Assembly: GCA_021736985.1 (NCBI GenBank)
Contig: JAIPEW010000007.1
Span: 1 to 64,000 of the forward strand
Origin: Clostridiales bacterium
Lineage (GTDB): Bacteria; Bacillota; Desulfotomaculia; Desulfotomaculales; VENG01
Reading direction: 5' to 3'
DNA: 64,000 bases
Below are positions 1 through 56,714 of the stretch, piece by piece (the stretch's first letter is position 1; each line of letters begins with the position of its first letter). The notes beneath the pieces were generated by a model that was not told the DNA's origin, searched no databases, and worked only from the letters and a program-made list of their open reading frames with translations. A program made the translations under genes and the position numbers.

Positions 1-290
1 GTTTCCTCCAGTCCGGCACTCAGTGCGCTTCTTAAAAAATTATTCTATAAGTAGTATATTTTTACTTCTGGCTTTTCTGCATTAGAGATGGGCTGAGTGC
101 CGGACGTATTTTTACTGGGAGCATAGAGTATGTTTTAGAAACCCGCTTAATGATAGTGCATATCAAGTTTTTTACGCCCTTAGCAGCCGGGGTATCGGGA
201 TTTGACGGGCTACGCAGCGCACCCAGACTCCGCTACCTTCCGGAAATCCCCCGGCCCTGGCCATAGTTTTCAGGAAGTTTTCTATTTAAA
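1..290. repeat. Tandem repeat copy 1 (left-truncated by window)
   Basis: First of three head-to-tail copies of a ~271-bp unit. The window starts inside its left internal inverted repeat (the gtttcctcca part). Unlike copies 2 and 3, this copy carries a 95-bp insert at 11-105 in place of a 9-bp stretch (ggagactcc in copy 3). From 106 onward it matches the other copies closely. The ORF spanning copies 2 and 3 is disrupted here, so I do not treat it as a gene. Confidence 0.9.
11..105. mobile_element. 95-bp MITE-like insert with 13-bp terminal inverted repeats
   Basis: The segment starts with gtccggcactcag (11-23) and ends with its exact reverse complement ctgagtgccggac (93-105). The interior is AT-rich and has no ORF. 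It sits inside a repeat copy whose sister copies lack it, so it is a polymorphic block within the array. No target-site duplication is visible. Instead a 9-bp stretch is missing relative to the sister copies, so replacement or imprecise insertion is as likely as simple transposition. Confidence 0.7.
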
Positions 291-561
291 CCCCCACGAG
301 CTTAGAGCTCACAACAGAGGATGAAAACTCTTCTGACAGTTGGGTGGAGGGCCGGTGGTTTCCTCCAGGAGACTTCGTATTTTTACCGGGAGCATAGAGT
401 ATGTTTTAGATACCCGCTCTATGATACTACACAGCAAGTTTTTTACGCCCTTAGCAGCCGGGGTATCGGGATTTGACGGGCTATGCAGCGCACCCAGACT
501 CCGCTACCTTCCGGAAATCCCCCGGCCCTGGCCATAATTTTCAGGGAGTTTTCTGATTAAC
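291..561. repeat. Tandem repeat copy 2
   Basis: Complete unit beginning cccccacgag. In order it holds a cacgagc/gctcac imperfect hairpin, a left arm gggccggtggtttcc, a ~170-nt interior, a right arm ggaaatcccccggccc (inverted relative to the left arm), and a ccatag...gaagttttct tail. It is nearly identical to copy 3 at a 271-bp period. The 65-codon ORF inside is conserved only because the DNA is; it has no convincing ribosome site. Confidence 0.9.
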
Positions 562-830
562 CCCCCACGAGCCTGGGGCTCACAACGGAAAATGAAAACT
601 CTTCTGATAGTTGGGTGGAGGGCCGGTGGTTTCCTCCAGGAGACTCCGTATTTTTACTGGGAGCATAAAGTATGTTTTAGATACCCGCTCAATGATAGTG
701 CATATCAAGTTTTTTACGCCCTTAGTAGCCGGGGTATCGGGATTTGACGGGCTATGCAGCGCACCCAGACTCCGCTACCTTCCGGAAATCCACCGGCCCT
801 GGCCATAGTTTTCAGGAAGTTTTCTATTTA
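562..830. repeat. Tandem repeat copy 3
   Basis: Third unit, with the same order of parts as copy 2. The right arm reads ggaaatccaccggccc and pairs slightly better with the left arm. The array ends about 100 bp before ubiX. Diverged single copies of the same family lie at 26846-26955, 43320-43500 and 52835-52965. Confidence 0.9.
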
Positions 831-934
831 AAGGCATTACGGATAATCTTTTGTATTCAGCAGCTTTTGTTGTTTTTAATCAAGATGTTATAATTCTTTT
901 AAGAACTAAATGAACTTTAACAGGAAGGTTATAT

Positions 935-7639: not shown

Positions 7640-8818
7640 ATGGCCAACAAGAAAAAGTTTGTGATTTTATTTATTTTATTTATGTCTGTTGTATTTGCAT
7701 GCACTGCCTGGGCAGCAGAAGGAGTTATTAACTTGGAACATCCCCTAAACGATGACTTTTACGCTGCAGACAGAAAAGTAAATGTAGATGACTTTTACGC
7801 TACAGGCAGAACAGTAAATGTAAGTGAGAGTATAGGCGGAGATCTAATGGCTACTGCTGAAAGTATAAGCAGTACGGGAACAATAGAAGGAGACATACTT
7901 GCGGCAGGCCGATCAATAGATATCAAAGGCAGCATAGGAGGAGATGTCAGGACTGCTGGACAAATTATAAATTTAGATGCTGATATTAACCGGGCAGTTA
8001 CTGTATTTGGACAGCGAATAAACATTGCTAAAGAAACCAGTATTGGTAAAAACGTTATCTTAGGAGGAAAACAGTTAGAGCTCGCAGGTGATATTGAAGG
8101 TAACGTACGTACATGGGGTGAAACAACCTCTGTTTCTGCTAATATTGGTGGTGACCTGATAGTTGAAGCAAATAAGTTAAAACTGCTTCCGGGAGCGGTT
8201 GTCAACGGCAATATTCAATACAAAGGACCTAATCAACCTGAAATCAGCGAAGAAGCAGAAGTTAAGGGAGAAATTAATTATACGCAGGCCCGAGTTGAAG
8301 AAGAACCAGGCACTCAGCAAGTTATATGGAACAAATTCCTGTCTTTATTTAAGCTCCTGGGCTTAGCATTATTGCTAGCTTTACTGGCAGCACCTTTTTT
8401 GCGGGCAGAGCTAGAAATATTTAGAAATAAGCCGTGGCTGAGCCTGGGCACAGGTTTTAGCTGGCTGCTTCTGGGCCCTGTATTAATATTTTTGCTTGCC
8501 GTAATAATCATTGGGCAAAAGGTTGCCTGGATATTTTCTGTATCTTACGTAGGATTTTTTATCACCGCACTATTTCTTTTTAAACCGCTAGCAGGTACTA
8601 TATTAGGCAAATGGGTTTTAGATAAATGGGGAGGAAGCCGCGAATACTCCCTTGTATGGGCTGTTTTATTAGGAACAACATTATTATGGATTGTAGGACT
8701 TATTCCTGTAGTCGGCTTTTTAGTCACGGCTGTTGGTACAGTATTTATTTTGGGCAGCTGGCTGGTTTTAATAGCCCGTTACGGTCTTTCTTTACCTAAC
8801 AGGAACAAGAACTCCTAA
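7640..8818 (+). CDS. Bactofilin-like (polymer-forming) protein with membrane C-terminus
   Basis: A 392-residue protein with a signal peptide (residues ~1-25). It then has ~170 residues of short repeating beta-strands rich in GGD, SIGG, GDI and AAG motifs, as in bactofilin right-handed beta-helices. The last ~160 residues hold about five hydrophobic helices. Such proteins are predicted to form envelope-anchored polymers, with the beta-helix on the outer face here. The ATG follows ggggagg at ~6 nt. A second gene follows 17 bp later. Confidence 0.75.
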   Translation: MANKKKFVILFILFMSVVFACTAWAAEGVINLEHPLNDDFYAADRKVNVDDFYATGRTVNVSESIGGDLMATAESISSTGTIEGDILAAGRSIDIKGSIGGDVRTAGQIINLDADINRAVTVFGQRINIAKETSIGKNVILGGKQLELAGDIEGNVRTWGETTSVSANIGGDLIVEANKLKLLPGAVVNGNIQYKGPNQPEISEEAEVKGEINYTQARVEEEPGTQQVIWNKFLSLFKLLGLALLLALLAAPFLRAELEIFRNKPWLSLGTGFSWLLLGPVLIFLLAVIIIGQKVAWIFSVSYVGFFITALFLFKPLAGTILGKWVLDKWGGSREYSLVWAVLLGTTLLWIVGLIPVVGFLVTAVGTVFILGSWLVLIARYGLSLPNRNKNS

Positions 8819-26845: not shown

Positions 26846-26955
26846 TTTCAATTAAACTTCCATGAGCTTCTTACTCACAACGGAGTGGCCCTTTCAATTT
26901 GTAGATTGTTATCTGCGTTTAAGACCATAGCCTTTTAGGAAGTTTTCTTATTAAA
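26846..26955. repeat. Internally deleted copy of the dispersed repeat family
   Basis: Starts with catgagcttcttactcacaac (the family's cacgagc...gctcacaac hairpin), then jumps from 'cggag' to 'tggccctttcaatttgtag' and on to ccatag...gaagttttct. The tail matches the minus-strand copy at 52835-52965. It lies against the stop of the LUD gene, in the position of a terminator region. Confidence 0.8.
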
Positions 26956-43319: not shown

Positions 43320-43500
43320 CCCAACTTCTTGCCCGGCCGGTTGCCAGAAAAGTTATGAGCAAAAAGCTCGTGGGCATTTAATTTGAAAACTCTGGTTTAA
43401 AACGCAAAAACACTAACTTAGGAGGGGCAGAGGTTTTCCGGGAAATCTCCCGACAGAAAACACCGGCCTCACCAACAACCTGGAAAGCTTTTATGTTTTC
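43320..43500 (-). repeat. Diverged copy of the dispersed repeat family
   Basis: On the minus strand it reads GGCCGGTGTTTTC, a 17-nt interior, GAAAACCTCTGCCCC, then ccagagttttc and the cccacgagctttttgctcataac hairpin. Parts and order match the tandem array at 1-830, but the interior is far shorter. It lies between cysK and the molybdate transporter terminator. Confidence 0.75.
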
Positions 43501-48133: not shown

Positions 48134-48244
48134 TCCTTTCTTATTTAACTTATAAACTCTTTTGTTTCAGGACTACCGACCCTCATCCGTTTACCTAAAA
48201 TTTTCATTCTCCGTTGTGGATCACAACCCCATAGGCATCTAATT

Positions 48245-48269
48245 AAAAAAACCGGAGTTTTAACTCCGG
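48245..48269 (-). terminator. Terminator of proximal Moco-type riboswitch
   Basis: CCGGAGTT/AACTCCGG stem followed by seven T on the minus strand, ~45 bp past the proximal aptamer. Confidence 0.9.
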
Positions 48270-48312
48270 CAGAAAAAAGCAACGGCTATACCGCTAACAG
48301 CAAGTAAAGCCT

Positions 48313-48404
48313 GCTCCTTTCCAACCGGGAGGCATAAAGGTTTCCCCGTATACCCTATCGTTCACGTACCATACTTAACAAGCTTAGGCAGCATGAATCG
48401 GAGC
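48313..48404 (-). ncRNA. Moco/Tuco-type riboswitch aptamer, proximal copy
   Basis: P1 GCTCC / GGAGC encloses the conserved blocks TGCCTAAG, GGGAAACC, ATGCCTCCCGGTTGGAAAGG. This follows the layout I know for the molybdenum/tungsten cofactor RNA motif. The compact interior suggests the form with fewer stems. A terminator follows, then the DUF364 and molybdate-transport genes. High cofactor should turn them off. Confidence 0.85.
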
Positions 48405-48429
48405 AAAATATTTTGTTTTACATAACAAT

Positions 48430-48473: not shown

Positions 48474-48493
48474 TTTTCTGCCGGGATATTCCT

Positions 48494-48611
48494 ACTCCTT
48501 TCCACCACGGGGGGCAAGCCAGTTTCCCGACCGCCGTTTGCCAGGTTTTATAACACCCGGCGCGGCTGAACACCATAGATATTGTTTCCTTAGGCAGTAT
48601 CAGCTCGGAGC
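48494..48611 (-). ncRNA. Moco/Tuco-type riboswitch aptamer, distal copy
   Basis: P1 GCTCC / GGAGT, then CTGCCTAAGG, a GC-rich arm (GCCGGGT...ACCTGGC), GGGAAACTGG and GCCCCCCGTGGTGGAAAGGAG. Same consensus order as the proximal copy but with a longer inner arm. It has its own terminator at 48430-48473, so two complete riboswitches act in series. Confidence 0.85.
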
Positions 48612-48718
48612 GCATATTTTAATTTTGTAAAATTTAGCTTCTATAAAACTTATTAAATTCCTTTAAAAAGCACCAACTTTTTTCTTTCCACATATCCTGT
48701 AAAAAAGGAGGGAGTATT

Positions 48719-49157: not shown

Positions 49158-50840
<1,683 letters not shown>

Positions 50841-52782: not shown

Positions 52783-52834
52783 TTAAACAAATATTTATAA
52801 TTTATTTTCATTATTGGTTTAGCAAAGTGGTTAA

Positions 52835-52965
52835 ATCGAAAACGCCCTAAAAAGCTATGGTCTTAAACACAGGTAACAATCTGCAAATTGAAAGGGCCAG
52901 TGGATTTCCAGAAGGCAACGGAGTATTCTGAAGGAAACCACCGGCCCGGCAGAAAAAAGCTTAAC
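52835..52965 (-). repeat. Copy of the dispersed repeat family, short-interior form
   Basis: Minus strand: GGGCCGGTGGTTTCC, ~23-nt interior, GGAAATCCACTGGCCC, tttcaatttgcagattgtt, accatag and ggcgttttc. The arms form a strong hairpin. It lies just past the stop of the MoeA-PBP gene, where a terminator is expected. Confidence 0.82.
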
Positions 52966-56351: not shown

Positions 56352-56454
56352 TTCAACCCCACCTTTCTCTCAAATTATATTACAAGTTAAATGGCTACGA
56401 GCTTTTATTCATAACACAGCATAAAAATTATGTTTGCGTTATCCTGCTTTAAAA

Positions 56455-56480: not shown

Positions 56481-56502
56481 CGCAATATCTCAATCATTTT
56501 GA

Positions 56503-56648
56503 GTACTCCTTTCCAGTACGGGAGGCATGCCGGTTTCCCTTTTTAATTGCTAAAGTAAAGCAAAGGCATACCCTCAAGCTGGCAAACAGCTTTCGTTCAG
56601 CAGCCATAGCTATGGAAAAAACAGCCTTAGGCATACTAAATCGGAGAC
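56503..56648 (-). ncRNA. Moco/Tuco-type riboswitch aptamer of the moeA operon
   Basis: P1 GTCTCC / GGAGTAC encloses ATGCCTAAGGCTG, an inner helical region, GGGAAACCGGCATGCCTCCCG and ACTGGAAAGGAG. This is the same consensus as the two aptamers at 48313-48611, with longer inner arms. It stands before the 58-residue gene and both moeA genes, giving feedback by the finished cofactor. Confidence 0.87.
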
Positions 56649-56714
56649 CTTATATTTTATTATATAAACTATAATTAATTACTAAATATGATTTTCCTGC
56701 ATAACAGTAAAAAT

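What the first reader, a model, noticed from the sequence alone, without database searches (positions are those of the whole stretch)
1..830. A dispersed repeat family with a constant frame and hypervariable middle
The tandem units (1-830) and single copies at 26846-26955, 43320-43500 and 52835-52965 share the same order: cacgagc...gctcac hairpin, GGGCCGGTGG-type inverted arms, ccatag...gaagttttc tail. The middle between the arms is ~170 nt in the array but ~17-23 nt elsewhere, and one copy has an internal deletion. Several copies lie right after stop codons. This resembles an unnamed repeat that could act as a transcript end or a recombination site.
Basis: partly seen in the sequence, partly recalled or inferred. 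Interest (0 to 1): 0.7.

Follow-up and report, generated by a model that had tools for sequence, protein, structure and literature searches.

The report
RNA-guided IS110 miniature transposon repeats
The repeats are stripped-down copies of a jumping gene of the RNA-guided IS110 family, which appears to have filled this bacterium's intergenic DNA with well over a hundred short, gene-less elements whose ends stay constant while their middles are swapped.

Summary
The repeats are real and far more numerous than reported: about 150 copies of the 5' module genome-wide (149 hits, search saturated; 191 pattern matches vs 19 control). The constant frame is not a transcript end. [quoted passage not shown] A complete LE-transposase-RE copy lies in the same genome (C4), fragments of others in C29, C39 and C46. 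The same LE lies beside IS110 genes in other genera (16 of 30 loci). The non-coding RNA between LE and transposase carries a stretch identical to each element's own target/LE junction (0 of 20,000 permutations reach the observed match). A second stretch matches the RE (16 of 20,000, anchored; unanchored test failed). Target preference (T-tract then RATTAA, n=82) equals the RE in the same register, which explains the tandem array. The copies are therefore MITE-like, non-autonomous IS110 elements, probably moved in trans by IS110 recombinase plus bridge RNA. Interiors are mosaics of swapped, sometimes inverted modules. I found no IS110-derived MITE in seven paper searches. Transposition itself is inferred, not shown.

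The parts
1..289 (+). 3' part of a copy cut by the contig start; module I interior, with a 95-nt hairpin module at 11-105; RE AGTTTTCTATTTAA at 276-289
   Evidence: R2 hit 204-291 E 9e-30
286..560 (+). complete copy 2 of the array, TTAA to TTAA (shared with neighbours); LE head 286-331, RE 547-560 (AGTTTTCTGATTAA)
   Evidence: R1 hit 287-357 E 3.5e-27, R2 hit 475-561 E 8.5e-30
557..831 (+). complete copy 3 of the array; LE head 557-602, RE 818-831 (AGTTTTCTATTTAA)
   Evidence: R1 hit 558-628 E 5.9e-25, R2 hit 746-832 E 2e-30
26852..26954 (+). single copy with internal deletion: LE head 26852-26886 joined to RE-side sequence, RE ending TTAA at 26951-26954
   Evidence: R1 E 3.7e-7, R2 E 1.4e-4
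43337..43381 (-). LE fragment (TTAA 43378-43381) whose outer edge abuts the RE of a second fragment
   Evidence: R1 hit 43350-43380 E 9.8e-6
43378..43500 (-). RE-side fragment ending AGAGTTTTCAAATTAA (tandem junction with the LE at 43337-43381); outer limit uncertain
48174..48246 (-).
   Evidence: R1 E 4.9e-8; riboswitch
52831..52964 (-). RE-side copy lacking the LE head; RE GCGTTTTCGATTTAA; outer limit uncertain
   Evidence: R2 hit 52830-52926 E 3.8e-13
56387..56432 (+). degenerate LE module
   Evidence: R1 E 1.5e-4

Best explanation
The repeats are non-autonomous (MITE-like) derivatives of an IS110-family insertion sequence. Each complete copy has an IS110 left end (TTAA-AC-N-CCCACGAGC-loop-GCTCACAAC-N-GAG-N-ATGAAAA, about 46 nt) and right end (AGTTTTC-NN-ATTAA). 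In place of the bridge RNA and transposase genes there is an exchangeable, mostly hairpin-forming interior. Inferred mechanism: IS110 recombinase and bridge RNA from the few full-length copies act in trans. The RNA's donor guide (UUGAUUAA in one copy, UUAUUU.. in another) reads the RE, its target guide (UUGAUUAAAC) reads RATTAA sites after a T-tract, and recombination within the shared TAA inserts the element. Because an inserted RE is itself a good target, copies stack head-to-tail into arrays. SHOWN by sequence: shared ends, copy number, target logo, guide matches, LE conservation across genera. INFERRED: trans-mobilisation, circular intermediate, exact core, origin of interior swaps.
For: Full-length LE-IS110-RE in C4 (Pfam PF01548 E 8e-26; NCBIfam 'IS110 family RNA-guided transposase' 204.8 bits, cut-off 140). 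IS110 left end after an LE in C29 and right ends before RE in C39 and C46, whose flanks diverge directly after TTTAAA. LE next to IS110 genes in other genera. In the single-contig genome G025 the only R1 hit lies upstream of its only E<=1e-60 IS110 gene, with an IS630 insertion between. ncRNA stretch identical to the element's own target/LE junction: 13 of 16 elements with 7-9 nt at the homologous place, sum 125 vs 89.3 permuted, 0/20,000; antisense control 1,044/20,000. RE/guide match anchored on TTTTC, 10 elements: 63 vs 51.7, 16/20,000. The two commonest RE heptamers, TATTTAA (16) and TGATTAA (14) of the 56 tail-hit REs listed, correspond to the donor guides of the two IS110 copies (sequences). 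Target logo in RE register (n=82 isolated; 27 more abut an RE). IS621 works with a 22-bp donor when bridge RNA is supplied separately (PMC11208160, passages).
Against: The unanchored search for a guide/RE match was not significant (15,747 of 20,000 permutations). Two of 16 elements (L246, L250) show no target-guide match, and in L252 the best match is not at the homologous place. The T-tract preference lies outside the guide. The C4 transposase is interrupted by a -1 frame change at an A9 run, so activity is uncertain. No empty site or circular form was seen. No close relative carries the family (112 other genomes of the class have at most 8 pattern matches). The interiors have no shown relation to IS110 coding DNA.
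Confidence: 0.86

Rival explanations
1. The head-tail repeats are independent REP-like elements, and IS110 merely inserts into the loop between head and tail, as IS1111 inserts into QMITE2 of Coxiella.
For: IS110-family elements can target palindromic repeats; QMITE2 is such a target of IS1111 (PMC5896051 passages). Minimal ~65-nt two-hairpin elements without IS110 exist in G047, G048 and G052.
Against: The ncRNA guide matches the junction OUTSIDE the head, not one inside the frame. A head occurs beside IS110 in a genome with no other head at E<=0.001 (G025). IS110-b copies are identical out to TTTAAA and then diverge. Two G049 copies share an identical head with different upstream DNA.
Confidence: 0.07
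2. Another enzyme moves anything bounded by head and tail, for example an IS200/IS605-type or RAYT Y1 transposase cutting at TTAA.
For: TTAA at both ends, a subterminal hairpin, head-to-tail copies; 12 Y1_Tnp matches in the genome.
Against: No head or tail near the 10 Y1 loci scanned (best E 0.29). The association across genera is with IS110 genes.
Confidence: 0.04
3. The repeats act mainly as transcription terminators or mRNA 3'-end structures.
For: Hairpin-forming sequence; intergenic location; some copies lie next to terminators.
Against: No gene-end bias; an array unit folds only at z -1.6; the ends are IS110 ends shared across genera.
Confidence: 0.03

Closest known systems
IS110-family insertion sequences with bridge RNA / seekRNA (IS621 and relatives)
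   Same: DEDD/Transposase_20 recombinase, ncRNA in the left end upstream of tnp, sense guides in the order target then donor, no long terminal inverted repeats (family facts from PMC11208160 and PMC11187229 passages).
   Different: Most copies lack recombinase and bridge RNA; ~46-nt LE with conserved hairpin and ATGAAAA; T-tract preference outside the guide; high copy number; swapped interiors.
Bacterial MITEs (QMITE1/2; Correia and RUP named from recall)
   Same: Short, gene-less, high-copy intergenic elements sharing ends with an autonomous IS.
   Different: No terminal inverted repeats or ordinary target duplication seen; parent is an RNA-guided recombinase. In the MITE review PMC10969869 the term IS110 does not occur, and IS1111 occurs only as inserting into a MITE.
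IS1111 group
   Same: Related DEDD recombinases.
   Different: IS1111 has subterminal inverted repeats of 11-13 bp and a downstream ncRNA (PMC11187229 passages); here the ncRNA is upstream and no such pair was seen by eye.
REP/BIME with RAYT; IS200/IS605 PATEs (from recall)
   Same: Hairpins, intergenic, repeated.
   Different: No Y1 gene is flanked by these modules.

Membership tests
IS110 family (IS110 group) | Recombinase with DEDD RuvC-like and Transposase_20 domains between the ends | tested here: met
   PF01548 and PF02371, NF033542 above cut-off, for the C4 copy; absent in the short copies
IS110 family (IS110 group) | Structured ncRNA in the long left end, upstream of tnp | tested here: met
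   L149:133-296 folds at z -2.75; conserved frame with two variable windows in 5 genera (hand-trimmed ncRNAs)
IS110 family (IS110 group) | ncRNA guide matching the target | tested here: met
   0 of 20,000 permutations, 16 elements
IS110 family (IS110 group) | ncRNA guide matching the donor (RE) | tested here: inconclusive
   Anchored 16/20,000, unanchored not significant
IS110 family (IS110 group) | Short core shared by target and donor, no ordinary target duplication | tested here: inconclusive
   Flanks share TTAA; core inferred within TAA
IS110 family (IS110 group) | Circular intermediate with promoter formed at the RE-LE junction | not testable with these tools
   No reads or circles; a TATAAT-like box in the LE was seen by eye only
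MITE-like non-autonomous element | Short, non-coding, many copies | tested here: met
MITE-like non-autonomous element | Ends shared with an autonomous element in the same genome | tested here: met
MITE-like non-autonomous element | Terminal inverted repeats (literal meaning of the name) | tested here: not met
   Only an internal GAAAACTC/GAGTTTTC pairing; hence 'MITE-like'
MITE-like non-autonomous element | Mobilisation in trans by the parental enzyme | not testable with these tools
   Inference; IS621 precedent with separate bridge RNA (PMC11208160)
IS200/IS605 PATE or RAYT-REP | Same ends flank a Y1 transposase gene | tested here: not met

The most novel reading that the evidence does not exclude
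This is an RNA-guided cassette system. Bridge-RNA recombinase, reading identical RE-like sites in neighbouring copies, stacks elements into arrays and swaps or inverts their interiors, so that a constant RNA-readable frame carries changing cargo, a bridge-RNA analogue of an integron. The frame has carried several kinds of interior (six recognised modules in 19 combinations), including three copies with module III inverted and one with module II inverted, and IS110 itself.
Probability: 0.2. Interest if true: 0.88.

Novelty: new variant of a known kind. Interest (0 to 1): 0.66.

Why it matters
Bridge-RNA (IS110) recombinases are being developed as genome-writing tools, but what they read naturally is known from few systems. 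Here one genome holds roughly 150 natural donors and targets apparently read by two closely related bridge RNAs that differ in the donor guide. That makes guide tolerance, the need for the LE hairpin/ATGAAAA signal, and trans use of bridge RNA directly testable. It also suggests that an RNA-guided transposon can be parasitised by gene-less derivatives, and gives a simple reason (RE = ideal target) why such elements form arrays that break assemblies.

Tried and rejected
Rejected: a named Rfam RNA (window at gathering score: only tRNAs and Moco riboswitches; L149 at E<=5: five weak hits, all below gathering score). A Y1/IS605/RAYT driver. IS110 as a mere passenger in REP-like targets. Gene-end/terminator role. 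The RNAalifold structure used for R1 was not the LE hairpin, so R1 is essentially a sequence model. The unanchored donor-guide test failed; the anchored version was run after it and uses the TTTTC motif I had noticed by eye, so it is partly post hoc. MAFFT misaligned several LE stems (A3), so no pair counts were made on it; stems were tested against shuffles instead (mean 5.75 vs 3.64 bp; of 16, L246, L242, L241, L266 and L244 are not below p 0.05). DNA folds of two minimal elements were weak (z -0.65 and -1.93). Rows dropped: heads with model start >3 or score <25, 34 of 153 heads at stretch edges, 6 of 16 elements without a usable RE region. Papers: searches (seven of ten allowed); passages seen in PMC11208160 (plus its section 12), PMC11187229, PMC11208158, PMC5896051, PMC10969869, PMC11578231, PMC9769881, PMC3718332, PMC12859917; no paper read whole. 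bioRxiv and most subscription papers are outside the library.

Full report
What is in the window. The array at 1-831 is two complete 271-nt units plus the 3' part of a third, cut by the contig start; the window is G000:C23:1-64000 of a 2.84-Mb, 65-contig genome. Units join at TTAA (286-289, 557-560, 828-831). Further pieces lie at 26852-26954, 43337-43500, 48174-48246, 52831-52964 and 56387-56432. Several contigs end inside copies (one search places), so the array probably continues elsewhere.

How many copies. The 5' module model R1 scored 149 hits from 150 scored candidates; the 3' model R2 111 of 150. An 18-nt pattern of the 5' module with up to 2 mismatches occurs 191 times against 19 for the reversed control. 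In 112 fetched stretches (481,635 nt) nhmmer finds 168 heads, 153 at E<=1e-3, and 99 tails, 93 at E<=1e-3. In the class, 7 of 113 genomes including this one have an R1 hit at E<=0.001; with a stricter pattern this genome has 133 matches vs 1 control, and the other 112 genomes at most 8. The amplification is special to this genome among those searched. The host is a Desulfotomaculum-like Peptococcaceae member, judged from one protein whose best named relatives are 61-71% identical.

Anatomy. Complete copies read TTAA-ACNCCC-ACGAGC-loop-GCTCACAAC-NGAGNATGAAAACTC ... interior ... GAGTTTTCNNATTAA. The 5' stem shows compensatory change: 10 cells changed on both sides, 0 of 500 shuffles; cells paired 86.0% vs 83.1% shuffled. 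Interiors are mosaics. Of 153 heads, 15 were cut short, 97 carry at least one of six recognised modules in 19 combinations, and 41 carry none of them; module III is inverted in 3 and module II in 1. The 95-nt hairpin at window 11-105 is one such module and occurs in several contexts.

What the ends are. C4:115,667 onward contains head, about 200 nt of non-coding DNA, an IS110-family transposase and the tail, then another head at the contig end (Pfam; NCBIfam). A second IS110 copy begins after a head in C29, and IS110 right ends in C39 and C46 run to AGAGTTTTCTATTTAAA and diverge directly after it. In other genera the head lies upstream of IS110 genes: G049 (two copies with identical heads and different upstream DNA), G025 (with an IS630 between), G061, G009, G033, G060, G052, G008, G023 and others. 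Of 30 IS110 loci examined (L241-L270), 15 carry the LE motif by my regular expression; L243 has its LE in L044, making 16; 14 do not. Two G009 copies diverge directly after TTTTCGTGTTAAAT. In the single-contig genome G025 the only R1 hit is this left end.

The guide evidence. Published IS110 bridge RNAs have a target loop followed by a donor loop; [quoted passage not shown] In 16 elements I compared the 14 nt around the left junction (11 in G009, cut by the contig edge) with the element's own ncRNA. Thirteen have a 7-9 nt identical stretch at the homologous place. The summed score is 125 against a permuted mean of 89.3, with 0 of 20,000 permutations reaching it; the junction's left part alone also gives 0 of 20,000; the antisense control gives 1,044 of 20,000. 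L246 and L250 fail, and L252's best match is elsewhere. Related elements are not independent, so the permutation count overstates the evidence somewhat, but the matches differ between genera (for example TGATTAAAC, ACTAAAC, AAGAAAAAC, TGCTAACC, AAGTAGAC). For the donor side, a search over whole downstream regions was not significant, whereas one anchored on TTTTC gave 63 vs 51.7, 16 of 20,000, 10 elements. Within this genome the two IS110 copies differ in donor guide (UUGAUUAA; UUAUUU, the latter cut by the contig end) and in RE (TGATTAA; TATTTAA), assuming that the C29 left end and the C39/C46 right ends belong to the same copy type. These are the two commonest RE types of the short copies (14 and 16; next TTATTAA 8 and GAATTAA 7). 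No guide for the latter two was found.

Target. Left flanks of 82 isolated heads show T at -9 to -6 (55-72%), R at -3 (78%), A at -2 (79%) and then TTAA; this equals the RE (TTTTC NN ATTAA) in the same register. The guide UUGAUUAA explains positions -5 to +2, including R and Y by wobble (my inference), but not the T-tract. Among sites with ATTAA, 25 of 50 have at least 4 T in -9..-4 against 99 of 595 background intergenic ATTAA sites (Fisher p 2.7e-7). Twenty-seven further heads follow a GTTTTC within 15 nt, that is, an RE: the RE is itself a good target, which explains arrays.

Context. Five of 153 heads lie in ORFs of at least 100 aa, though 77% of the fetched DNA is ORF; there is no bias to gene ends. 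The transcript-end idea is not supported.

Mechanism, with status. Shown: shared ends, target preference, guide identity, LE conservation. From the literature: IS621 recombines a 22-bp donor when its bridge RNA is expressed separately (PMC11208160 passages). Inferred: the short copies are excised and inserted in trans by the IS110 recombinase; the core lies within TAA; interiors change by recombination between copies. The recombinase of the C4 copy needs a -1 frame change at an A9 run; the same change occurs at A8 runs in G061, G009 and G033, so it may be programmed rather than decay.

Novelty. MITEs of many IS families are known (recall), and IS1111 is known to insert INTO a MITE (PMC5896051 passages), but I found no IS110-derived non-autonomous family in the papers listed by searches, nor in the passages seen; that library lacks preprints and many journals. 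I therefore call it a new variant of a known kind.

Noticed in passing
L149 near 1270-1290, L244, L245/L270, L246 (G000, G061, G009, G033): IS110 transposases in four genera change frame by -1 at an A8-A9 run directly after the ESAG motif, with the conserved C-terminus open in the new frame; G025 lacks the run and is in one frame. Suggests programmed frameshifting or slippage.
   Followed up: partly
16 of 30 IS110 loci, L241-L270 plus L044: A conserved left-end signal, CCAT/CCAC + variable stem-loop + CAC..ATGAAAA, marks a broad IS110 subgroup; stem sequences differ between genera but usually stay paired.
   Followed up: partly
L183, L184, L188 (G052, G048, G047): Minimal ~65-nt elements: LE hairpin joined directly to a second short hairpin (GAAAAYAGC..TATTTTC), ending ATTAA or ATGAA, in other genera.
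   Followed up: no
window 48174-48415 and 48479-48622 (-): Two tandem Moco riboswitches (a third at 56490-56658); an LE fragment lies between the terminator-like hairpin after one of them and the downstream gene.
   Followed up: no
L140, L141, L143, L144 (G000): Four RAYT-like Y1 proteins of about 257-284 aa without head/tail repeats nearby; plus IS200 and TnpB-like remnants (TnpB named by eye).
   Followed up: no
G086 and G090: Several near-identical CTCTCCATAAAGNATGAAAA matches, possibly another IS110 left-end family with a few short copies.
   Followed up: no
L044:235-1368 with L243 (G025): An IS630 element (NF033545, 233 bits) sits inside the bridge-RNA region of the G025 IS110, which should disable its guide RNA.
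   Followed up: partly
window 7751-7822 and 49186-49221: Short tandem repeats (36-nt unit x2; 9-nt unit x4), both within listed ORFs.
   Followed up: no
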